Shown piece by piece: positions 439 through 9,716 of a DNA stretch of 64,000 nt. The position numbers and the translations under genes are program-made. The notes beneath the pieces were generated by a model. It was not told where the DNA came from. It searched no databases and saw only the letters and a program-made list of their open reading frames with translations. The DNA is from Streptomyces sp. NBC_01750 (GTDB taxonomy: Bacteria; Actinomycetota; Actinomycetes; Streptomycetales; Streptomycetaceae), in contig NZ_CP109137.1 of NCBI RefSeq assembly GCF_035918095.1, positions 2,544,001-2,608,000 of the forward strand. The letters run 5' to 3'. Every line of letters starts with the position of its first letter. The stretch's first letter is position 1.

Positions 439-1145
439 ACACGGTGAGCGCGTTCGCCCGCTGTGAGTGGGGGCCGCTGTACGTGACCGTGCGCAGGGCA
501 CTCGTCACGAGGAAGTGGCGGGCGATCCCGATGACGCTCGGGGCGGTCTGTCTCACGGCCCTGTTCCAGTTGGTGCAGAACCAGTCCTGGGGCTTCGGCC
601 CGGTGCGCAACCTCGGCTTCGTGAAGGCCGATGACCCACTCTGGCTGGCGTTGCTGCGTACCCCGCTGTCGCTGTTCGTCCCGGCGCTGGATCTGCCGGT
701 GTGGGGTGCGCTGGCACAGGTCCTGCTGGTCTTCGGGATCGCGGAGATCACTCTGGGCCGGTGGCGGACGCTGGTGATCGCGTATGTGTCGACGCTGGCC
801 GGCACGACGTACGCACGGATCGGTGTCTCACTCGACCCCGAGGGCCTCTTCGGGCTTCCCCCTTCGGACGCCGTGGTCGTCGACACCGGCCCGTCGGCGG
901 CGGTCGTCGGCCTCGCGGTCTTCGTCTGCTGGCGCTACCGGGCCTGGTGCACGGCGGTGCTGGTGGCCGTATTGATGGTCGGCGAGGTGCTCTTCAAGAA
1001 CAATCTCGCGGGCAAGGAGCATCTGGCGGCGATCGCGGCGGTGCTGGCGGTGTGCGGGCTTTCGGCGCTGCGCCGACGGCTGCGGCTCAGGCGTCAGCGT
1101 TTGCGCACCGGAAGCCGGTCGGGAGCCCCGCCGATCAGGTCCTGA
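435..1145 (+). CDS. Rhomboid-like integral membrane protein
   Basis: A 236-residue polytopic protein with about six hydrophobic segments. Two pieces recall the rhomboid catalytic dyad: GPSAAVVG (Ser in place of the usual GxSG context) near residue 150 and EHLAAIAAV near residue 200 (the His of the last helix). The second Gly of GxSG is missing, so it may be an inactive rhomboid relative of the type common in Streptomyces. The TTG start overlaps the upstream stop codon and has a GGAG eight bases upstream; a GTG at 444 is an alternative. The 3' end overlaps the convergent membrane gene by 52 bases. The coupling suggests that it works beside the lysyltransferase-like protein; that is inference. 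Confidence 0.65.
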
Positions 1146-1849
1146 AGTTTGCGGCGCGGCCGGTCCCAGCGGCGGTCGTGGTGGAAGGAGCGCAGCCCGG
1201 CCCTGGCGCGCGCCTTGGGCCGGTTGCGGTAGAAGCGGCGGGCCCAGGGCGAGCCGGGCCGGGCCAGCCGTAGCGCACCGAAGATCGCCACGAACGGGAT
1301 GAGCGTGCCGATGAGCGCCATCCGCAGCTTGCCCTTGAAGAGCGCGATGATCACGAAGAGGAAGTTGAACGCCAGCGTCAGGATCAGCGAGGCGCGGTCC
1401 TGGCGTTCGTCGGGAGTGAGCTGGTCCACGCCGAGCGGCGAGAAGCCGCCGAGTGCCAGCAGCGCCAGGGCCGAGGCGATCACCACGACCTCCACGCTCT
1501 GCCGGCCCTGCTCGGTCCAGTAGACGTCGTCGAGATGGAGGATGAGCGCGAACTCGTCGAGCACGAGGCCCGCGCCGATCCCGAAGAGGATCGCGAAGAC
1601 CACTGCGGCGGGGCCGTCCCGGCCGTTGCCGACCGCCCCGAAGCCGCCGATCACGACCAGGATGACGCCGGGGACGACATGGTGGATGTGCATGCCGCCG
1701 GGCGTGATGTTCTTGAACGGCCCCCGGCCTGCCCTGATCAGCCGGGTGACCGTGCGCGTCACCAGGAAGGTGAGCATGAAGGAGGCCAGCGCGAGCAGCA
1801 TCGGGAGCTTCCCCGGCTCGACGATGTTGCGGTAAAACCAGTGACCCAT
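1094..1849 (-). CDS. Conserved actinobacterial integral membrane protein
   Basis: About 251 residues with five to six likely membrane segments and a basic C-terminal tail (RRFYRNRPKARARAG). A conserved patch, GGMHIHHVVPG, followed by LDEFALILHLDDVYW, places His, Asp and Glu residues near membrane borders and could bind a metal. I recognise the family only as a conserved hypothetical membrane protein of actinobacteria; no function is assigned. The ATG at 1849 (MGHWFYRN) has GGGAG upstream; a longer reading to 1882 lacks a ribosome site. It is convergent with the rhomboid-like gene and divergent from cobS. Confidence 0.6.
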   Translation of the reverse strand: MGHWFYRNIVEPGKLPMLLALASFMLTFLVTRTVTRLIRAGRGPFKNITPGGMHIHHVVPGVILVVIGGFGAVGNGRDGPAAVVFAILFGIGAGLVLDEFALILHLDDVYWTEQGRQSVEVVVIASALALLALGGFSPLGVDQLTPDERQDRASLILTLAFNFLFVIIALFKGKLRMALIGTLIPFVAIFGALRLARPGSPWARRFYRNRPKARARAGLRSFHHDRRWDRPRRKLQDLIGGAPDRLPVRKR

Positions 1850-1966: not shown

Positions 1967-2731
1967 ATGGACGGCATACGTTTCGCCTTCGGCACGCTGA
2001 CCGTGCTCCCGGTCCGCGTCACCCGCTGGGACCGTGCGGCGGCACGCGACGGAATGCTCTGCGCGCCGCTGGCCGGACTGGTGGTCGGCGTGTTCGCGGC
2101 GGCTCTAGGCGGGTTGCTGATGCTGCTGGGCTCGGGCCCGCTGCTCGCGGCGGTGGCCACGGCCGCCGTCCCCGCAGCCCTCACCCGCGGCCTCCATCTG
2201 GACGGTCTCGCGGACACGGCCGACGGCCTCGGCAGTGGCAAGCCCGCCGAGGACGCACTGCGGATCATGAAGCAGTCGGACATCGGCCCGTTCGGGGTCA
2301 TCACCCTGCTGTTCGTGCTGCTCACCCAATGCGCGGCACTGACCGGGCTGTACGGGCAGAGCTGGGCGCACGGCGCGGTCGCGGCGGCGGTCTCCGGGGT
2401 CACCGCCCGCCTCGCCCTCACCCTCGCGTCCCGCACGGGCGTGCCGGCGGCCCGCCCGGAAGGCCTCGGTGCGGCGGTCGCGGAAGTCGTTCCGGTACCC
2501 GTCGCACTGGCCGTGGCCGCGGTGGTCACCGCGGTCTGCGCGGCGGCGGGCACCCTCTTCGGCGCGTACGGCGCAGTGCACCACGCACTGGCGGTGGCAG
2601 CCGGACTCGTCGCGGCGCATCTGCTGCTGCGCCACTGCGTTCGCCGCTTCGGCGGGGTGACGGGCGATGTGTTCGGCGCGCTGGCCGAGACGGCGGCGAC
2701 GGCGGCGCTCGTCGTGCTGGTGCTCGGCTAG
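1967..2731 (+). CDS. cobS: Adenosylcobinamide-GDP ribazoletransferase (cobalamin synthase)
   Basis: A 254-residue membrane enzyme that joins adenosylcobinamide-GDP to alpha-ribazole in the last part of coenzyme B12 synthesis. It carries the family signatures RGLHLDGLADTADGLG (acidic, near residue 76) and GGVTGDVFGA near the C-terminus, within about six hydrophobic helices; length is normal for CobS. The ATG at 1967 is chosen because GAAGGA lies six bases upstream and the product begins MDGIRFAFGTLTVLPV, typical of streptomycete CobS. No other cob gene and no cobalamin riboswitch is visible in the flanks here. The gene ends within a few bases of the convergent GH114 gene. Confidence 0.93.
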   Translation: MDGIRFAFGTLTVLPVRVTRWDRAAARDGMLCAPLAGLVVGVFAAALGGLLMLLGSGPLLAAVATAAVPAALTRGLHLDGLADTADGLGSGKPAEDALRIMKQSDIGPFGVITLLFVLLTQCAALTGLYGQSWAHGAVAAAVSGVTARLALTLASRTGVPAARPEGLGAAVAEVVPVPVALAVAAVVTAVCAAAGTLFGAYGAVHHALAVAAGLVAAHLLLRHCVRRFGGVTGDVFGALAETAATAALVVLVLG

Positions 2732-3624
2732 GTTTCACCCTTCCGTGGCCCTCGGGCGGGCGCCCGCGCGCTGTGTGGTCCTCCGGCTCCGAGTGTCCCC
2801 CGGCTCCAGCAGGGCTTGCGCCACACCCCGAGCTCGTACTTCTTCAGCATCGAGCTCAGCTTCAGCCGCCGGGTCTCGGCACAGAAGTCGCCGGTGTCCA
2901 GCTCGTACTCGACATGAAAGACCGCCTTGCCCGCGCGGATGAACGGTGTCAGCGCCTCGCACTCGTCGTGCTCCGCGCACTGCTCGTTGACCGCGAAGTC
3001 GAAGTCCCCCACCAGCTGCGGGATCTGGTCGAGATCGTTCTTGAGGCCGACGGCCAGGCCCCGGTCGTGGGCGAGGCCGGCGATCGTGCGGTTGTAGCGG
3101 AGCTGGTCGGCGGCGGTGACGGGGAAGCCGGTGCGGTTGGCGTACGCGTCCATGTTGTCGGGCTCGACGGCGTCGAAGCCCTTGTCCCGGCACATGTCCA
3201 TGCGCTCGGCCATGAGCGGTCCGAGGATGTCCGTACGCCGGATGTCGAGCCAGCGCTCACCGTCCCAGCCGTTGCCGCGGCCGAGGACCTCCTTGGGGAA
3301 CTTCGCCGCGTCCGGGCGGAAGTCCTCCCAGGCGCCGGTGGAGAGATAGCAGATGACCTTGCGGCCGCGGCGGTGCAGATCGGCGACGGCGGACTTCGGG
3401 TGGTCGAAGCCGTCGATGTCGTACACCGGTACGTCCACGGTCGGGTCGAGACGGCCGCTGAGCTGCCACTGCCAGGCCATTCCCGGCTCCGGCTGCCAGC
3501 GGTCGGCAGGCGGCTTCCCGTCGGAATGGGTGGTACAGCCCGCCGGCAGCAGGACAAGCAGCACGAGCACCGGGAGTACCCGTCTCGCCGAGCGTACGTG
3601 TGTCACCGGGCGTACGCGTCTCAC
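2728..3624 (-). CDS. GH114 endo-alpha-1,4-polygalactosaminidase-like lipoprotein
   Basis: About 298 residues. A basic N-terminus and hydrophobic stretch end in the lipobox LPAGC (Cys30), predicting a lipoprotein on the outer face of the membrane. The remainder is a full GH114 domain: MAWQWQLSG, VPVYDIDGFD, VICYLSTGAWEDFRP, then GFDAVEPDNMDAYANRTGF, with the acidic residues expected at the active site, and DFDFAVNEQCAEHDEC and VFHVEYE. GH114 enzymes (fungal Ega3) cut alpha-1,4-linked galactosamine polymers; PelA carries a related hydrolase domain. The GTG at 3624 overlaps the upstream stop codon (GTGA), indicating coupling; GTG 3606 is an alternative. It is the last gene of the five-gene locus. 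Substrate is inferred from family and neighbours. Confidence 0.88.
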   Translation of the reverse strand: MRRVRPVTHVRSARRVLPVLVLLVLLPAGCTTHSDGKPPADRWQPEPGMAWQWQLSGRLDPTVDVPVYDIDGFDHPKSAVADLHRRGRKVICYLSTGAWEDFRPDAAKFPKEVLGRGNGWDGERWLDIRRTDILGPLMAERMDMCRDKGFDAVEPDNMDAYANRTGFPVTAADQLRYNRTIAGLAHDRGLAVGLKNDLDQIPQLVGDFDFAVNEQCAEHDECEALTPFIRAGKAVFHVEYELDTGDFCAETRRLKLSSMLKKYELGVWRKPCWSRGTLGAGGPHSARAPARGPRKGET

Positions 3625-4268
3625 CGGGACGGCTCCAGTGCGGACGGGAGGGTGCTCCAGGGGTGGGCCCCGGCTCCCGGGACAAGGCAGTGGACGGCGG
3701 CAGCGGCGCGGGCTTCTGGCGGGGCCGCGTACACCAGATGGCAGAACCGCTCCGGCGGGTGGGCCGCAGTCCACAGCGGGACGATCAGGCTGCGGTAGGT
3801 GTCCCAGGGGCCCTCGAACGTGACCAGCAGCTCGGCGAGTTCCGTGTAGGCCGGGTCGGGGTGGACACCGTGGTTGAGGACGAGCGTGCGGGCTCCCACC
3901 GCGCGGGCGGCGACGGCGAGGCGGCGGTAGTGGGGCAGCGCGTCGGGGTCCGCGGATGCCTGGTCGAGGAAGGCACCGTCCGCGCCGTACCAGTCGCGGT
4001 GGCGCAGCAGATCCCGTACGACGGCGGCGTGCGGGCGGCGCGCGTAGTCGGTGTCGACGTAGCCGAGGACCCGGACCCCGGCCCCGCGCAGCCGCTCCGC
4101 GACCGCCGCGAACTCCGGGTCGGCGGCCGCGCCGGGGCCACTGGCGGGGTTGATCACCACGCCGTAGAGCCGGGGCGCGGCGGCGATGAGCGTGTCCCAG
4201 GCTTCGGGCTGCTCGGCGGGATGCTCGTAGTACGGCACCAGCAGTCTCTTCACAAAACCGTTCCTCAT
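3621..4268 (-). CDS. Spherulation-specific family 4 (spherulin-4 / Sph3, GH135-like) protein
   Basis: A 215-residue single-domain protein of the spherulin-4 family. Recognisable stretches are LLVPYYEHP at the start, GVVINPASGPG, VLGYVDTDYARR, DGAFLDQASADPDALP and LLVTFEGPWDTY; the conserved Asp and Glu in these match the acidic residues of GH135 glycosidases such as Aspergillus Sph3, which acts on galactosaminogalactan. Unlike Sph3, no signal peptide or membrane anchor is visible (MRNGFVKRLLVPYY), so it appears cytoplasmic. The start overlaps the upstream stop codon (ATGA) and its own stop overlaps the GH114 start. Role in polymer editing is inference from family and context. Confidence 0.85.
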   Translation of the reverse strand: MRNGFVKRLLVPYYEHPAEQPEAWDTLIAAAPRLYGVVINPASGPGAAADPEFAAVAERLRGAGVRVLGYVDTDYARRPHAAVVRDLLRHRDWYGADGAFLDQASADPDALPHYRRLAVAARAVGARTLVLNHGVHPDPAYTELAELLVTFEGPWDTYRSLIVPLWTAAHPPERFCHLVYAAPPEARAAAAVHCLVPGAGAHPWSTLPSALEPSR

Positions 4269-5875
4269 ACGCGGTGGGCGCTCGCACGGCCCAGCAGAAC
4301 ACAGACCATCCCCGCCAGCAGCACCGCCGCCACCGCCGCGACAACGAGCCCGACAAGCCCAGGGCCGCCCGTGCCGGTGAGCAGTGCCAGCGCCTGCGCC
4401 AGGGCCGCAGCCACGCACACCGCGGCCGCGCGGAGCACCGCGCCGAACGACTGGAGCAGCAGCCCGGTCCACAGCACTGTCCCTATGAGCAGCAGGGTGG
4501 CAAGACGCCCGCCGCCGAGCGCGGGGGCGTCGGGCCACAGCACCGTCCCCGCGACGGCGAGGACGAACAGAACGGTGAGATATCCGGCGAGACACTCGGC
4601 GAGCACGGCGGCGGAGCCCCGCCGGAAGGCGCGTGACGTGGTGCTCGCGCGCAGCCCGGCGAGGCTCCCGCCGCGGAAGCGGTGCAGCAGCCATTCGGCC
4701 GGCCCCATGCTGAGCGTCAGCGCTACGGCGGAGGGCGCGGAGACGACCGCGCCGGGTCCGCCGGCGAGGACATCGCCGAGTGCGGTGTAGAGGACGAGGA
4801 CGCCGGTGCCGAGCCCGAAGAGCCCGTACGGGAGGGAGGCGGCGACGCGGGGAGCGGCCCGCGTGTCCCGGCGGCGCGGCCGTGTCCTCCATGGCCGGAC
4901 GGGCTGGATTTTCCCGCCCGTCCGGCGGGAAGATCCGTCCGCGCCGGCGGCGATCGGCCCGGCCGGAGATGATGAAGACAGGCCCCTCCTCCGCCGGTTG
5001 AGGAGCGGGGTTCGGGGCGAAGCCCCGGAAGGGGGCTGCCGCTCCCGCGAACCCGGGATGCATCGCGCCAGCGTGCCCCCCGCCAGCACCACCGCGCACA
5101 CCAGCGACAGCAGCAGCAAGCCCGTCCGCAGCGATACCGCCAGGTCGTACGACAGTGCCAGTGCGGCACCCGCCGTCATCGGTAACAGTGCGCAGAACAG
5201 CGCCCGTTCGCGGCCCATGACCAACAGGACCGTCGCCGCCGCCAGATAGAGCGCCTGGGCCGACGCGAACGCCGCCGCGGGCCACTCGCCGGGGCCTGAC
5301 GACACCGCCGCCGCGATCGCCGCCGTCGCCGAGCCCAGCAGCGCGCCCGCCGGAGCGCCCGTCAGCAGCGCGCGGGCGGCCGCTTCGCGGTCGCCCAGGC
5401 CCAGCCAGGAGTAGGCGCGGTGCGAGAACGCCTGGTTCCACACCCAGCCGGTCAGCGCGCCCGCGAGCAGCGGGGCCAGGCCCGCGCCCCGCAGCAGCGG
5501 TGCTCCCAGCACGTAGGCAAGGCCCGGCAGCGCGAAGACGAGGCCGCGCAACAGGCAGCCGAGCAGCCCCACGTGCCAGGGGTCGACGGGCGGGCCGGGC
5601 GGCTCGGAATAGCGGCGCGGGATCCGGGCGTACAGCTCTTCGGCGAGCGTGAAGGAGTCCTCGCGGCCGTATGTGAGGCGAATGTGGTCGTCCGTCATGC
5701 CGTCGGACTCGAGGATCGCGGCGATCTCGTCCGGATGGACGGCCGCCGCGACCACCTCCTCCAGACGGACCGCGAGTTCCTCCAGCGGATCGGCGGCGCG
5801 GCCGCCCCGCTGCCGGGGCAGCACCGGCAGCGTGTCGACCTGTTGGCCGGGTCCCTGCCAGAGCGGCCCGCTCAT
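4265..5875 (-). CDS. Large integral membrane protein of the exopolysaccharide locus, with in-frame repeat insertion
   Basis: About 536 residues. An N-terminal soluble part of roughly 100 residues (EELAVRLEEVVAAAVHPDEIAAILESDG) precedes two membrane blocks of about five to six helices each. Between them, residues about 275-335 form an Arg/Ser/Pro-rich stretch encoded by a Streptomyces-type palindromic repeat, so this loop is probably an insertion and not an ancestral domain. The start overlaps the PelF-like stop codon (ATGA). By position it may serve as export or assembly partner of the glycosyltransferase, the job done by PelG in Pel loci, but I see no sequence likeness to PelG. Function inferred from context only. 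Confidence 0.75.
   Translation of the reverse strand: MSGPLWQGPGQQVDTLPVLPRQRGGRAADPLEELAVRLEEVVAAAVHPDEIAAILESDGMTDDHIRLTYGREDSFTLAEELYARIPRRYSEPPGPPVDPWHVGLLGCLLRGLVFALPGLAYVLGAPLLRGAGLAPLLAGALTGWVWNQAFSHRAYSWLGLGDREAAARALLTGAPAGALLGSATAAIAAAVSSGPGEWPAAAFASAQALYLAAATVLLVMGRERALFCALLPMTAGAALALSYDLAVSLRTGLLLLSLVCAVVLAGGTLARCIPGSRERQPPSGASPRTPLLNRRRRGLSSSSPAGPIAAGADGSSRRTGGKIQPVRPWRTRPRRRDTRAAPRVAASLPYGLFGLGTGVLVLYTALGDVLAGGPGAVVSAPSAVALTLSMGPAEWLLHRFRGGSLAGLRASTTSRAFRRGSAAVLAECLAGYLTVLFVLAVAGTVLWPDAPALGGGRLATLLLIGTVLWTGLLLQSFGAVLRAAAVCVAAALAQALALLTGTGGPGLVGLVVAAVAAVLLAGMVCVLLGRASAHRV
4868..5050 (-). repeat. Palindromic Streptomyces-type repeat inserted in the membrane protein gene
   Basis: This stretch contains an inverted repeat around 4911-4935 (TTCCCGCC facing GGCGGGAA) and the phrase CCTCCGCCGGTTGAGGAGC followed by GGGGCGAAGCCCC, a type of wording I know from dispersed intergenic repeats in Streptomyces genomes. 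It keeps the reading frame open and adds about 60 low-complexity residues (LLNRRRRGLSSSS and neighbours) to a protein otherwise made of membrane helices. Confidence 0.55.
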
Positions 5876-7323
5876 CCCAGCGCCCACTCGGTGGCCTGCC
5901 GGATGTCCGCGTCCTCAGCCCCGGGCAGACCCTCCGCCAGCTCGAGGTAGATACGCCGGAAACCGTCCACCGAGCGGCGCAGCGTGAACTGGTCCACGAC
6001 CCGCTGCCGCGCGCGCCCGCCAAGACCGGCCCGCCGTTCGGGGTCCCGCAGCAGGCCCATAGTCGCCTCCGCCATCAGCGCGGGCTCGCGCGGCGGCACC
6101 ACAAGCCCTGTGTCACCGACCGCTTCCCGTACTCCGCCCACGTCCGTGGAGACCGTGGCGCGGCCGCACGACATCGCCTCGATCAGTGAGAACGGGAACC
6201 CTTCGCTGATGCTGGAGAGCAGCACCACGCTTCCCGAGGCGTAGGCGCGCGACACATCGCTGACGCGCCCCTCCCAGCTGATGCCGTCCACGACGCCCAG
6301 TTCCGCGGCGAGTTTCTCCAGCCGTGTCCGGTACGCCTCGCCGCCCGCCGGCACGCCGCCGAACAACCGCAACCGCACCTCGGGCAGTTCGGCGCGGACC
6401 ATGGCGTACGCCCGGATCAGCGTCTCCAGGTCCTTGATCGGGTCGATCCGTCCGGCCCAGGAGATCGTCGGCACGTCCGGCTCGGGACCCGCCTGCGGGA
6501 AGGCGTGCGGGTCGACGCCGTTGTAAACGGTGCGGATACGGTCCGCGGGCGCCCCGCCCCGCTCCTCCCACCGCCGGTTGTACTGATTGCAGGGCGTGAT
6601 CAGATCGGCGCGCCGGTAGCCCAGCGAGTTGAGCTCCCGGTAGAAGCCCAGCATCAGCGCCTTGACCGGCGCGCGCTGCGCCTCGGCGCGGTAGCCGAGG
6701 TAGCGCTCGCGCAGATAGATGCCGTGCTCGGTGAGCAGGAACGGCACACCCTCGAAGCGCTGCGCGGCCAGCGCGGGCAGCGTGGCGAGCCCCGCGCTGA
6801 CGGCGTGCGCGATCGAGTCGTCCGGTATCCGTACCGCCAGCGGCCGCAGCGCGTGCTCCAGCAGATCGGTGGCGGTCAGCGCGTCGTGCACGGTCGGCCG
6901 GGACGCGGATATCTCCAGATGCGGCATGGTCCAGATCCACATCAGCGAGCGCAGTACGGACTCCGAGCGCAGTGCCTCCGACAGCTGTCCCGCGCGGGCC
7001 AGCAGCGCCAGTTCGTACAGTCCCGCGCCGAAGTCGCAGCCCGCCGACGGGTCGAGTATTGACAGCAGGAAGCTTTCGTAGATGTCGGTGAAGCGGCGCC
7101 GCTTCCGCCCGAAGAGGGGCCGGCGCCGCCCCGGCACCGGCCCCCATAGAGGGAAGGCCGAGTGCCGGTAGACATTCGACGGCAGCTCCCAGGTGACCGG
7201 CTCACGGCCGGTGCCGGTGAGGGCGACGACATTGAAGTCGACCTCCGGCATTCCGCGTACGAGCTGGTCGCACCAGGTCGACACACCCCCGTGGACGTGT
7301 GGATAGGTGCCTTCGGTGAGCAT
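5872..7323 (-). CDS. PelF-like GT4 family glycosyltransferase
   Basis: 483 residues from the ATG. The N-terminus LTEGTYPHVHGGVSTWCDQL, the middle LLTEHGIYLRERYLGYR and YNGVDPHAF, the WAGRIDPIKDLETLIRAY motif and the C-terminal GT4 acceptor/donor region SISEGFPFSLIEAMSCGRATVSTDVGGVREAVG are diagnostic of the PelF branch of GT4. PelF is a cytoplasmic enzyme that polymerises N-acetylhexosamine from UDP-sugar in Pel synthesis; the GT4 part of fungal Gtb3 is comparable. The ATG at 7323 cuts the usual first beta strand short. An in-frame CTG (7347) or ATT (7350) follows a strong AGGGGGG and would restore it, so the true start may be a rare codon. It lies just downstream of the deacetylase gene. Confidence 0.9.
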   Translation of the reverse strand: MLTEGTYPHVHGGVSTWCDQLVRGMPEVDFNVVALTGTGREPVTWELPSNVYRHSAFPLWGPVPGRRRPLFGRKRRRFTDIYESFLLSILDPSAGCDFGAGLYELALLARAGQLSEALRSESVLRSLMWIWTMPHLEISASRPTVHDALTATDLLEHALRPLAVRIPDDSIAHAVSAGLATLPALAAQRFEGVPFLLTEHGIYLRERYLGYRAEAQRAPVKALMLGFYRELNSLGYRRADLITPCNQYNRRWEERGGAPADRIRTVYNGVDPHAFPQAGPEPDVPTISWAGRIDPIKDLETLIRAYAMVRAELPEVRLRLFGGVPAGGEAYRTRLEKLAAELGVVDGISWEGRVSDVSRAYASGSVVLLSSISEGFPFSLIEAMSCGRATVSTDVGGVREAVGDTGLVVPPREPALMAEATMGLLRDPERRAGLGGRARQRVVDQFTLRRSVDGFRRIYLELAEGLPGAEDADIRQATEWALG

Positions 7324-7387
7324 GGTGACATGACTGCCGCGGCTCAGAATGTTGTCCCCCCTGGACAGCGATGACGGTCGGCTGCGC

Positions 7388-9442
7388 TCAGACCGGGAGC
7401 TTGAGCGTGACGGCCGACTGGAGCAGCTCGGGCGAGGTCCAGGCCGAGCGTGCTCCCGCGTACGGAGTCCCGAACACAGCCGTGCCCACCAACAGTTGCT
7501 TACGGGTGCCTTCCGGCGCGGTGACGGGCGCGGTCACACCCGAGGGCGCCTGCACGGTGACAGTGGCGCCGATGCGGTACGCGGTCACCCTGCCGTCCGC
7601 GAGCGCCTTGTTCCAGGCGGCCCGGCGCTGAAGCTCCGTACCGGCGTCGCGCTGGCTCGGGTTGACGAGCGGGGCGCTGTCGGCGAACAGCGCGCGGTAG
7701 TCGGCCAGCACCTTGTCGAGCACCGGGTAGAGGATGCGCTCCTCGGCAAGGTTGGACTGGTGGACGTAGTGCGGCCGCGGGTCGTTGGCGATGACATGGC
7801 TCAGCGCGGTACGGGCCTCCTGCGGCACGATGTACGAGGCGTAGCCGGTGGCGGTGTCCAGTGGCTCGGCCAGGCAGGTGGAGGCGGGGTTCGTCTCGCA
7901 GACGCCGCTGCCCCCGTCGCCCTCGGCGGTGTAGATCCAGTTGTACTCGTCCGCCATCTCGGCCGCGGTGCCGACGTTGTAGTACACGTTCATCGGGTGG
8001 CGCGGCACGGTCAGCGCCGCTCCGGCCTTCCGCTGCTGCGGCTCGCGGGAGTTGTCGCTGGCGACCCACTTCACGCCGTTGTCGGCCAGCGCCCCGGCGA
8101 GGTTCGGATTGTCCTGGGGCTGCTGCGGCAGGGTCATGAGACCGGAGTGCTCGCCGGTGACCAGCTCGGTGCGGTCGGTCGGGATGCCCTTGCCGACGGC
8201 CCAGTTGTAGTTGTCGCGGATCTGCGCGGAGATGTCGGCCCGGCTCGTCCACCGGGTGTTGCCCGTGGTGTCCTTGGCGCACTGCCACGGCACGACCGAG
8301 ACGTCCTGGACACAGCCGAGGAAGAGGTGCGTATAGGTGTGGTTGACCCAGCGGTACTGCGCGCGGTCGGCCACCAGCTGTGCGGCGAGCGCGTCGGTGC
8401 CGCCGTGCTCGGTCTTCCACTCCTCGCCGGCGCCCGCGTTGTAGACCATGTCGAGAGTGAATCCGCTGGTCTGCTGCCACTGCCTGGCGTACTGCGCGTC
8501 GGCGGCGGTCATCCGGATGTCGGTGGTGGTCTCCTCGCCCCCGTCGCCACAGTCGATGTCGCCGGGCGTGCAGTTGCGGTCCTTGTCCCAGCGGGCGTCG
8601 GGCGCGAAGACGTCGTCGACGTGCACGGAGAAGTAGCTGCGACTCTGGCCGAGGTGGATGCCCTGGGTGAGCCATTCGACGATGCCGCGGGCCAGTACCC
8701 GGAACTGCCGCTGGTACTGGTTGTAGGCGAACGTGACGACCAGCTCGCTGCGTCCGTCGTGGGCGTACTCGCCGACCAGGCTGCCGCGGGCGGCGCCGTC
8801 GCCGACCGGTGTGTCGAGATAGCTGGTGAAGCCTTCCCTGGGCTTGCCGGCGAAGCCGTAACTCTCGGCGACCAGAGCGGAGTTGTCCTCGAACCGGACC
8901 GGCCCGTCGAGATAGCCGAAGGGACCTGTACGCCCGGCGGCGGTGACCGCGCTCTGCGCGCCGTCGAGCACCCCCGCGTAGCCGCCGTTGTCGACGTACT
9001 CGAGACCGACACCCGGATGGGACCACGTGTAGGCGTCGACCTGGCGGATGCCGAAGGTCCGCTCGTACGCGAAGAGCGCGGCGTTCTCCGCTGCTCCGGC
9101 AGTCGAGTCCGCGCCGAACGGATCCTCGTCGGGGACGACGATGCCCTGGTACTTGGCTCGCGGCCGGCCGCTCACGGTGTCGCTGAGAAAGGCGGCGTCG
9201 ACGACGGGACGCCCCGGATCGTCGAGGCGCACCGTCCGGTACGGCACCCCGGTGTCCTTCAGCTCCGAGACGATCGCCCCGACCGCGCCGCCTCCGTCGT
9301 CGACGACGAGTACCGTCAGATCGATGCGCGGCGCCGGCGCGGCGGCAGCTGCCGCGACCGACGACGGAACGGCCGTCGCCAGTACTCCGGCGGCCAGTGC
9401 CACCGCGGCCGATCTGCCCGCGCGCAGTCCGTGGAACCCCAT
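7388..9442 (-). CDS. Secreted polysaccharide deacetylase, Agd3 / CE18-like
   Basis: 684 residues with a clear Sec signal peptide (MGFHGLRAGRSAAVALAAG, then an Ala-rich h/c region). After an N-terminal domain (IDLTVLVVDDGG; FGIRQVDAYTWSHPG) comes the catalytic-looking part: YFSVHVDDVFAPD supplies an Asp pair and WVNHTYTHLFLGC a His-x3-His motif, the metal-binding layout of NodB-type deacetylases; a C-terminal domain follows. Overall order and the Cys-rich CTPGDIDCGDG loop recall fungal Agd3, which deacetylates galactosaminogalactan outside the cell. The ATG at 9442 follows GGGGGGAAG. It is the first gene of the minus-strand polysaccharide locus and is divergent from pepA. CE18 membership is by eye and needs a profile search. 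Confidence 0.8.
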   Translation of the reverse strand: MGFHGLRAGRSAAVALAAGVLATAVPSSVAAAAAAPAPRIDLTVLVVDDGGGAVGAIVSELKDTGVPYRTVRLDDPGRPVVDAAFLSDTVSGRPRAKYQGIVVPDEDPFGADSTAGAAENAALFAYERTFGIRQVDAYTWSHPGVGLEYVDNGGYAGVLDGAQSAVTAAGRTGPFGYLDGPVRFEDNSALVAESYGFAGKPREGFTSYLDTPVGDGAARGSLVGEYAHDGRSELVVTFAYNQYQRQFRVLARGIVEWLTQGIHLGQSRSYFSVHVDDVFAPDARWDKDRNCTPGDIDCGDGGEETTTDIRMTAADAQYARQWQQTSGFTLDMVYNAGAGEEWKTEHGGTDALAAQLVADRAQYRWVNHTYTHLFLGCVQDVSVVPWQCAKDTTGNTRWTSRADISAQIRDNYNWAVGKGIPTDRTELVTGEHSGLMTLPQQPQDNPNLAGALADNGVKWVASDNSREPQQRKAGAALTVPRHPMNVYYNVGTAAEMADEYNWIYTAEGDGGSGVCETNPASTCLAEPLDTATGYASYIVPQEARTALSHVIANDPRPHYVHQSNLAEERILYPVLDKVLADYRALFADSAPLVNPSQRDAGTELQRRAAWNKALADGRVTAYRIGATVTVQAPSGVTAPVTAPEGTRKQLLVGTAVFGTPYAGARSAWTSPELLQSAVTLKLPV

Positions 9443-9716
9443 GACTTCCCCCCTCGCACGATCCCTCGGCACACAGAAGCATGCGGAGGACCTGTGGAGA
9501 TGATGCAAAGAAGCCCCTCGCTCCCTTGCCTGAACGACGTGAGTGTGACTGAGGTCTCGCCGGAGTTCGCGAAAACATGAAAGAGACGCCACGGACGAGT
9601 GAATTGCCGCCGCCGTGAGCGAAACATGTGACCGCGCGTAGGCTCTTGTCCGGCGTGGGATGTCGATCCATCCCCTTCTACGGCCCTGGACTCAACGGAA
9701 GCGAGATTTCACCACC

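What the first reader, a model, noticed from the sequence alone, without database searches (positions are those of the whole stretch)
2728..9442. Bacterial counterpart of the fungal galactosaminogalactan cluster (GH114 + spherulin-4 + GT4/PelF + membrane protein + CE18-like deacetylase)
Five minus-strand genes, the lower four with stop/start overlaps or tight spacing, encode exactly the enzyme classes of the Aspergillus galactosaminogalactan cluster (Ega3 GH114, Sph3 GH135, Gtb3 GT4/membrane, Agd3 deacetylase), and also the split functions of PelA and PelF. Only the epimerase Uge3 is absent. This suggests that streptomycetes make a cationic, partly deacetylated galactosamine polymer by a route not described for them as far as I know.
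Basis: partly seen in the sequence, partly recalled or inferred. Interest (0 to 1): 0.85.

Follow-up and report, generated by a model that had tools for sequence, protein, structure and literature searches.

The report
Fungal-type GAG polymer operon in Streptomyces
A five-gene Streptomyces operon carries the same kinds of enzymes that moulds use to make a sticky, positively charged sugar polymer; this resemblance was already noted in print for some actinobacteria, but here one of its enzymes seems to work inside the cell instead of outside.

The parts
7388..9442 (-). Agd3-like (CE18-type) polysaccharide de-N-acetylase with signal-like N-terminus and CBM87-like domain, 684 aa; DD at 276-277, HxxxH at 368-372, EHSG from 431, HQSN from 561
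5872..7323 (-). PelF-type GT4 glycosyltransferase, 483 aa, presumed cytosolic polymerase
   Evidence: DUF3492 1.8e-54; NCBIfam PelF NF038011 158 bits, cut-off 100
4265..5875 (-). 12-helix membrane protein (6+6 around a variable linker, plus a conserved N-terminal helical domain, residues 30-84); MOP/MATE-fold transporter, PelG analogue
3621..4268 (-). Spherulin-4 / GH135-like TIM-barrel hydrolase, 215 aa, no signal peptide; D102 and E152 align with the Sph3 catalytic pair
   Evidence: PF12138 1.1e-30; Sph3 5c5g 6.6e-13; catalytic columns; no hydrophobic N-terminus
2728..3597 (-). GH114 endo-alpha-1,4-galactosaminidase-like, 289 aa, hydrophobic N-terminus ending in PAGC (lipobox-like, not matching the strict pattern used); possible GTG start at 3624
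   Evidence: PF03537 4.6e-86; Ega3 6oj1 3.7e-57; catalytic D and E columns kept in 24 of 24 sequences
9443..9659 (.). Divergent intergenic region between the operon and the next gene (pepA, leucyl aminopeptidase; name from recall)
   Evidence: Coordinates; promoter not tested

Best explanation
The operon makes, exports and partly de-N-acetylates a linear N-acetylhexosamine exopolymer, on the plan of fungal galactosaminogalactan. Shown by computation: gene set, folds, catalytic residues, co-occurrence. Inferred: (1) the cytosolic PelF-type GT4 polymerises UDP-HexNAc (most likely GalNAc); (2) the MOP-fold membrane protein moves the chain out, the two together filling the role of fungal Gtb3; (3) the Agd3-like enzyme, secreted, removes acetyl groups and makes the polymer cationic; (4) the GH114 enzyme, tethered outside, cuts deacetylated stretches; (5) the GH135-like enzyme has no export signal and so probably cuts the still acetylated nascent or stalled chain on the inner face. 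Step 5 agrees with published substrate preferences: Sph3 for acetylated, Ega3 for deacetylated polymer. The product most likely serves hyphal adhesion.
For: Families; Agd3 fold over all three domains and profile hit. A relative found with the same profile outside the class (L169) passes Agd3_CE (93.5 bits) and CBM87 (45.7) over the 27.6 cut-offs and sits beside PelF-type GT4 and PelG. Catalytic columns, window included: GH114 D and E 24/24; spherulin-4 D 34/34, E 33/34; deacetylase DD and HxxxH 37/39, HQ-N 38/39. Co-occurrence in 61 genomes: 32/32 with the A/B-class GT4 (63-100% identity) have the deacetylase, 0/28 without the deacetylase have that GT4; GH114 in 24/33 vs 6/28. Hydrophobic N-terminus, duplicates dropped: deacetylase 103/108, GH114 76/80, spherulin-4 0/107 in Streptomyces.
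Against: No biochemical or genetic data. The window deacetylase is under Pfam's cut-offs. No epimerase in the operon; the PelX-like one of the own genome does not co-occur. In spherulin-4 the glutamate next to the nucleophile (E167 in Sph3, recalled as important) is Q in 29 and R in 5 of 34. GH114 is missing in 9 of 33 deacetylase genomes and present in 6 of 28 without. One deacetylase genome (G047) has no A/B GT4. Species are related, so counts are not independent. Transporter function rests on a predicted fold.
Confidence: 0.7

Rival explanations
1. The operon makes a de-N-acetylated polymer of another amino sugar (GlcNAc, or a 6-deoxy-HexNAc), not galactosamine; the GAG resemblance lies in the machinery only.
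For: No PelX-type epimerase travels with the system. Sister class B loci carry, between membrane protein and spherulin-4, an SDR closest to LegB (444.5 bits, just under the 475 cut-off, L028) in which TSE aligns with TDE of a TDP-glucose 4,6-dehydratase (that this marks dehydratases is recalled), a nucleotidyltransferase and a second SDR (read in L028, L029, L190).
Against: The founding GH114, GH135 and CE18 enzymes act on GalN/GalNAc polymers (PMC12054363 and PMC7229062, passages); the own genome has four GalE proteins over the cut-off that might supply UDP-GalNAc (specificity not tested). The class A operon of the window has no such sugar genes.
Confidence: 0.25
2. A degradation or recycling locus for foreign GAG/Pel-like polymer (for example from fungi), not a synthesis locus.
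For: GH114 and an Agd3-like esterase outside the cell could degrade fungal GAG; an endo-galactosaminidase of S. griseus is cited in PMC7229062.
Against: A PelF-type glycosyltransferase and a flippase-fold protein are in the same operon, and the GT4 co-occurs with the deacetylase in 32 of 33 genomes. None of the five genes is an importer family or an exo-glycosidase by Pfam.
Confidence: 0.07
3. A true but divergent Pel system whose transporter has drifted beyond PelG recognition.
For: GT4 passes the PelF equivalog; the transporter lies next to GT4, where L169 and L170 have PelG, and has the MOP fold. Pel loci are reported for some actinobacteria (PMC7112168, PMC7112194, passages).
Against: No PF16933 match in the own genome; the deacetylase resembles Agd3, not PelA; hydrolases are GH114 and GH135-like, not GH166 as in PelA; no PelD among the five genes.
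Confidence: 0.2

Closest known systems
Aspergillus fumigatus galactosaminogalactan cluster (uge3, sph3, gtb3, ega3, agd3)
   Same: GH114, GH135-like, GT4-type polymerase with a membrane part, Agd3-fold deacetylase in one cluster; catalytic residues kept
   Different: No epimerase gene; polymerase and membrane protein are two genes (that Gtb3 joins both parts was not tested); spherulin-4 without export signal
Bacterial Agd3 operons of Bamford et al. 2020 (PMC7229062, section 13 read in full, other passages seen)
   Same: Cytoplasmic GT, multi-span membrane protein, Agd3 homologue, GH114, spherulin-4 in some Actinobacteria: the window is an instance of this
   Different: The parts seen give no transporter fold, no localisation of the GH135 enzyme, no paralogue classes and no co-occurrence counts; supplementary lists were not seen
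Gram-positive Pel (pelDEADAFG; PMC7112168 and PMC13254593, passages)
   Same: PelF-type GT4, membrane transporter, polysaccharide deacetylase
   Different: No PelG match in the own genome and no PelD among the five genes; Agd3-like deacetylase instead of PelADA (classed CE26); extra GH114 and GH135-like enzymes
Streptomyces MatAB poly-beta-1,6-GlcNAc (PMC5972031, search listing only)
   Same: An exopolymer of hyphal adhesion in the same genus
   Different: Different polymer by its title; sequences not compared here

Membership tests
GAG-type biosynthetic cluster | Agd3-type three-domain deacetylase | tested here: met
GAG-type biosynthetic cluster | GH114 endo-galactosaminidase with catalytic D and E | tested here: met
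GAG-type biosynthetic cluster | GH135 Sph3-like enzyme with the catalytic D/E pair | tested here: met
   the residue after the nucleophile is Q or R in 34 of 34 instead of E
GAG-type biosynthetic cluster | Sph3 and Ega3 both membrane-bound on the outer face | tested here: not met
   Spherulin-4 lacks a hydrophobic N-terminus in 107 of 107 distinct Streptomyces copies; GH114 has one in 76 of 80. Prediction only
GAG-type biosynthetic cluster | Epimerase gene in the cluster | tested here: not met
   Five genes only; the unlinked PelX-like epimerase does not co-occur
GAG-type biosynthetic cluster | Product is partly deacetylated alpha-1,4-GalNAc polymer | not testable with these tools
   Needs chemistry
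CE18 / Pfam Agd3_CE | Score over the curated cut-off | tested here: not met
   19.0-19.3 vs 27.6 bits for the window protein; 20 of 29 relatives match at E 0.01 or better (best 9.2e-7); profile-linked L169 scores 93.5
CE18 / Pfam Agd3_CE | Catalytic motifs and CBM87-like N-domain | tested here: met
PelF GT4 | NF038011 equivalog cut-off | tested here: met
   158 vs 100 bits
Pel system | PelG (PF16933) | tested here: not met
   0 matches in the own genome; no Pfam match in the membrane protein
Pel system | PelD c-di-GMP receptor | not tested
   None among the five genes; the whole genome was not searched for it
MOP/MATE transporter fold | 12 helices in two bundles of six, alignable to MOP structures | tested here: met
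   (the listed rows are MATE, WzxE or MurJ entries, one titled only 'protein A'); Foldseek alone weak (E 7.8e-3)

The most novel reading that the evidence does not exclude
Streptomycetes split the GAG-type pathway across the membrane: the GH135 enzyme works in the cytosol on the acetylated nascent chain as a built-in chain cutter or proof-reader, while GH114 and the deacetylase work outside. A widespread minimal trio (GT4, flippase, cytosolic GH135; class C) makes a non-deacetylated polymer, the deacetylating classes A and B arose from that stock, and B has switched to a 6-deoxy-hexosamine polymer.
Probability: 0.3. Interest if true: 0.72.

Novelty: new variant of a known kind. Interest (0 to 1): 0.52.

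Why it matters
If right, many streptomycetes encode a mould-like cationic adhesive polymer, which bears on hyphal clumping in fermenters, on adhesion in soil and on the proposed bacterial origin of the fungal GAG cluster. The missing export signal of the GH135 enzyme makes the open question of what Sph3 does during synthesis directly testable in a tractable bacterium.

Tried and rejected
Considered and dropped: (a) the PelX-like epimerase L063 as the missing Uge3: best PDB match 6wjb (recalled as PelX), serine at the recalled gatekeeper position, but present in only 5 of 61 genomes without association. (b) Reciprocal loss as proof that classes A and B share a substrate: G016 keeps an intact deacetylase only at A, and GT4, membrane protein and spherulin-4 only at B; G404 keeps spherulin-4 at A and shows none at B. 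But G404 and G405 keep a deacetylase at B too, and class B is common anyway: 6 of 10 genomes with a complete A locus, 3 of 4 with a spherulin-less A locus (G034; G406 and G407 yes, G408 no). It stays an anecdote. (c) L166: the slot between spherulin-4 and GT4 holds a 458-aa ORF with several hydrophobic segments but no profile or Pfam similarity. (d) In the fold lists no PelG structure appears for the transporter; absence there excludes nothing. (e) One search found the spherulin-4 pattern in only 7 of 116 sequences, so that part was redone with another boundary, and all three proteins were recounted without duplicate loci. (f) In one search most GH114 rows carry an inside stop; for G006, G009 and the second own copy the alignment runs past the end of the ORF found, so I read these as the genes' own stops (others not checked). 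G058 counts as lacking GH114 although a partial hit lies at the end of L028. (g) Papers: rows listed (25 of 36; 20 of 99; 30 of 512; 9 of 9; 15 of 60; 20 of 98; 15 of 16; 8 of 70; 6 of 6) showed no experiment on this Streptomyces operon by title and abstract start; unlisted rows, most subscription journals and all supplements were not seen.
Full report
WHAT IS THERE. The five ORFs are real, co-directional and tightly spaced. Pfam and NCBIfam give GH114 (PF03537, 4.6e-86), spherulin-4 (PF12138, 1.1e-30), a GT4 with DUF3492 that passes the PelF equivalog (158 vs 100 bits), a deacetylase with only weak Agd3 matches (CBM87 23.0 and Agd3_CE 19.0 bits, cut-offs 27.6) and a membrane protein without any family. 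Solved relatives: Ega3 6oj1 (3.7e-57) and Sph3 5c5g (6.6e-13). The window lies in an 8.98-Mb genome.

CATALYTIC RESIDUES AND TOPOLOGY. PMC12054363 (passages) names Asp189/Glu247 in Ega3 and prints Asp196/Glu222 for Sph3. In the alignments the conserved D and E lie 58 and 56 residues apart, so I read the Sph3 nucleophile as Asp166. Both pairs map to conserved columns: GH114 24/24 and 24/24, spherulin-4 34/34 and 33/34; the residue after the Sph3 nucleophile is Q in 29 and R in 5 of 34. I then asked whether a hydrophobic 12-mer lies between a possible start and the first core strand. With duplicate loci dropped it does in 103 of 108 deacetylases and 76 of 80 GH114 proteins (71 with a lipobox pattern), but in 0 of 107 Streptomyces spherulin-4 proteins (A 80, B 16, C 11); 2 of 3 from other genera have one (before dropping, 109 of 115, 81 of 85 and 0 of 113). 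Eight deacetylases and three GH114 proteins without the boundary pattern were left out, the boundary for spherulin-4 was set differently, and loci not in my B or C lists were counted as A. PMC12054363 describes fungal Sph3 and Ega3 as membrane-bound, Sph3 as specific for fully acetylated polymer and acting where the chain leaves Gtb3, and Ega3 as specific for deacetylated stretches. A cytosolic Sph and an outer GH114 fit those preferences. In Neurospora the GH135 mutant stayed adherent while synthase and deacetylase mutants did not (PMC11356417, passages).

DISTRIBUTION. In 61 Streptomyces genomes the deacetylase occurs in 33 and the A/B-class GT4 (63-100% identity) in 32, all among the 33 (Fisher 1.5e-16, species not independent). 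GH114: 24 of 33 vs 6 of 28. Spherulin-4: 59 of 61. Of 80 named loci, 57 have all five genes in order; 8 have all but GH114 (one cut by its contig; in one, L085, the membrane-protein hit is on the other strand); 3 lack spherulin-4; 5 show deacetylase-GT4-membrane protein; 4 only deacetylase-GT4; 3 only the deacetylase with or without spherulin-4 (L073 cut by its contig, L106, L114). Across the phylum 11 of 346 genomes match: 5 of the same genus and 6 others. In 5 of those 6 a GT4 lies in the fetched stretch; L168 has none. So outside Streptomyces the system is rare.

THREE CLASSES. A GT4 tree of 49 rows supports A (window; 20 rows, 100/100), B (14 rows, 97/93), A+B (98/94) and C (9 rows, 100/100); some distant rows have long branches. 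B loci show 2.7-3.2 kb between the membrane-protein and spherulin-4 hits in 14 of 14 loci where both were seen. The genes there, read in L028, L029 and L190, are an SDR nearest to LegB (L028: 444.5 bits, cut-off 475), a nucleotidyltransferase (L028) and a second SDR (L029) (family searches). TSE of the first SDR aligns with TDE of a TDP-glucose 4,6-dehydratase (1r66), which I recall as the dehydratase rather than the epimerase signature. C is assigned by GT4 identity of 42-51% in 52 of 61 genomes; one further hit in that range (L044) was left out because it belongs to a divergent locus with its own deacetylase-like gene. Of 13 C loci read, 13 have the membrane protein, 11 spherulin-4, and none a deacetylase or GH114 within the 14-20 kb fetched. 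The own genome also has a C locus at 5.85 Mb (L046) and a remnant with GH114 and a deacetylase fragment at 7.67 Mb (L043).

PRECURSOR. The own genome has four GalE proteins over the cut-off and one SDR nearest to 6wjb in the PDB (recalled as PelX). That gene is in 5 of 61 genomes and not associated with the system. The monomer is therefore not settled.

KNOWN OR NEW. Bamford et al. 2020 (PMC7229062; section 13 in full; passages of abstract, introduction and discussion) report Agd3 homologues in 45 bacterial species. Of 35 in their tree, 30 lie in or near operons with carbohydrate enzymes; all operons have a cytoplasmic GT and a multi-span membrane protein, GH114 is highly consistent, spherulin-4 occurs in some Actinobacteria operons. 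The discussion cites galactosamine polysaccharides and an endo-galactosaminidase in Streptomyces. Pel loci in some actinobacteria are also in print (PMC7112168, PMC7112194, passages). The finding is thus an instance of a published prediction. The listed rows of nine paper searches (named in Tried and rejected) showed no experiment on this operon. The added points are the transporter fold, the missing export signal, the three classes, the tight GT4-deacetylase link and the lack of a linked epimerase; I did not see them in the parts of the papers that I read.

VERDICT. Observation confirmed; interpretation right in kind, overstated in novelty and in the identity of the sugar.

Noticed in passing
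L028:15906-18802; also L029, L190: Class B paralogous loci carry a LegB-like SDR, a nucleotidyltransferase and a second SDR between the membrane protein and the next hydrolase gene, pointing to a 6-deoxy amino sugar.
   Followed up: partly
L046 (own genome C1:5844001-5864000) and L178-L189: Class C: GT4, membrane protein and mostly spherulin-4 without deacetylase or GH114 nearby; GT4 of this identity range in 52 of 61 Streptomyces genomes; upstream of a moeZ-like gene (name from recall) in the own genome.
   Followed up: partly
L043:9286-10333 (own genome C1 about 7.668 Mb): Remnant cluster: a complete GH114 ORF beside a 144-aa fragment of an Agd3-like gene.
   Followed up: no
L042:9494-11614 (G047): Lone divergent Agd3-like protein that has lost both histidines of HxxxH and one aspartate of DD, in a genome without the A/B GT4: probable pseudo-enzyme.
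   Followed up: partly
L169:3887-13080 and L170: Actinobacterial pel-like loci with PelF-type GT4, PelG, an Agd3-type deacetylase (over Pfam's cut-offs in L169) and a spherulin-4 with hydrophobic N-terminus; L169 also has a GAF/GGDEF (PelD-like) protein upstream.
   Followed up: partly
L022 and L045 (G016); L106 and L190 (G404): Complementary gene losses between the A and B loci of one genome.
   Followed up: partly
window 4890-5060: The membrane protein's linker between its two helix bundles holds an insertion with a short inverted repeat (ggggcttcgcccc); the 20-mer at 5007-5026 occurs once in the window.
   Followed up: no
window 1097-1831: A small membrane protein without Pfam match recurs beyond the cobS-like gene (name from recall) in 54 of 80 named loci.
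   Followed up: no
own genome C1:4699724-4700695 (L063): PelX/WbgU/WbpP-like epimerase, rare in the genus (5 of 61 genomes).
   Followed up: yes
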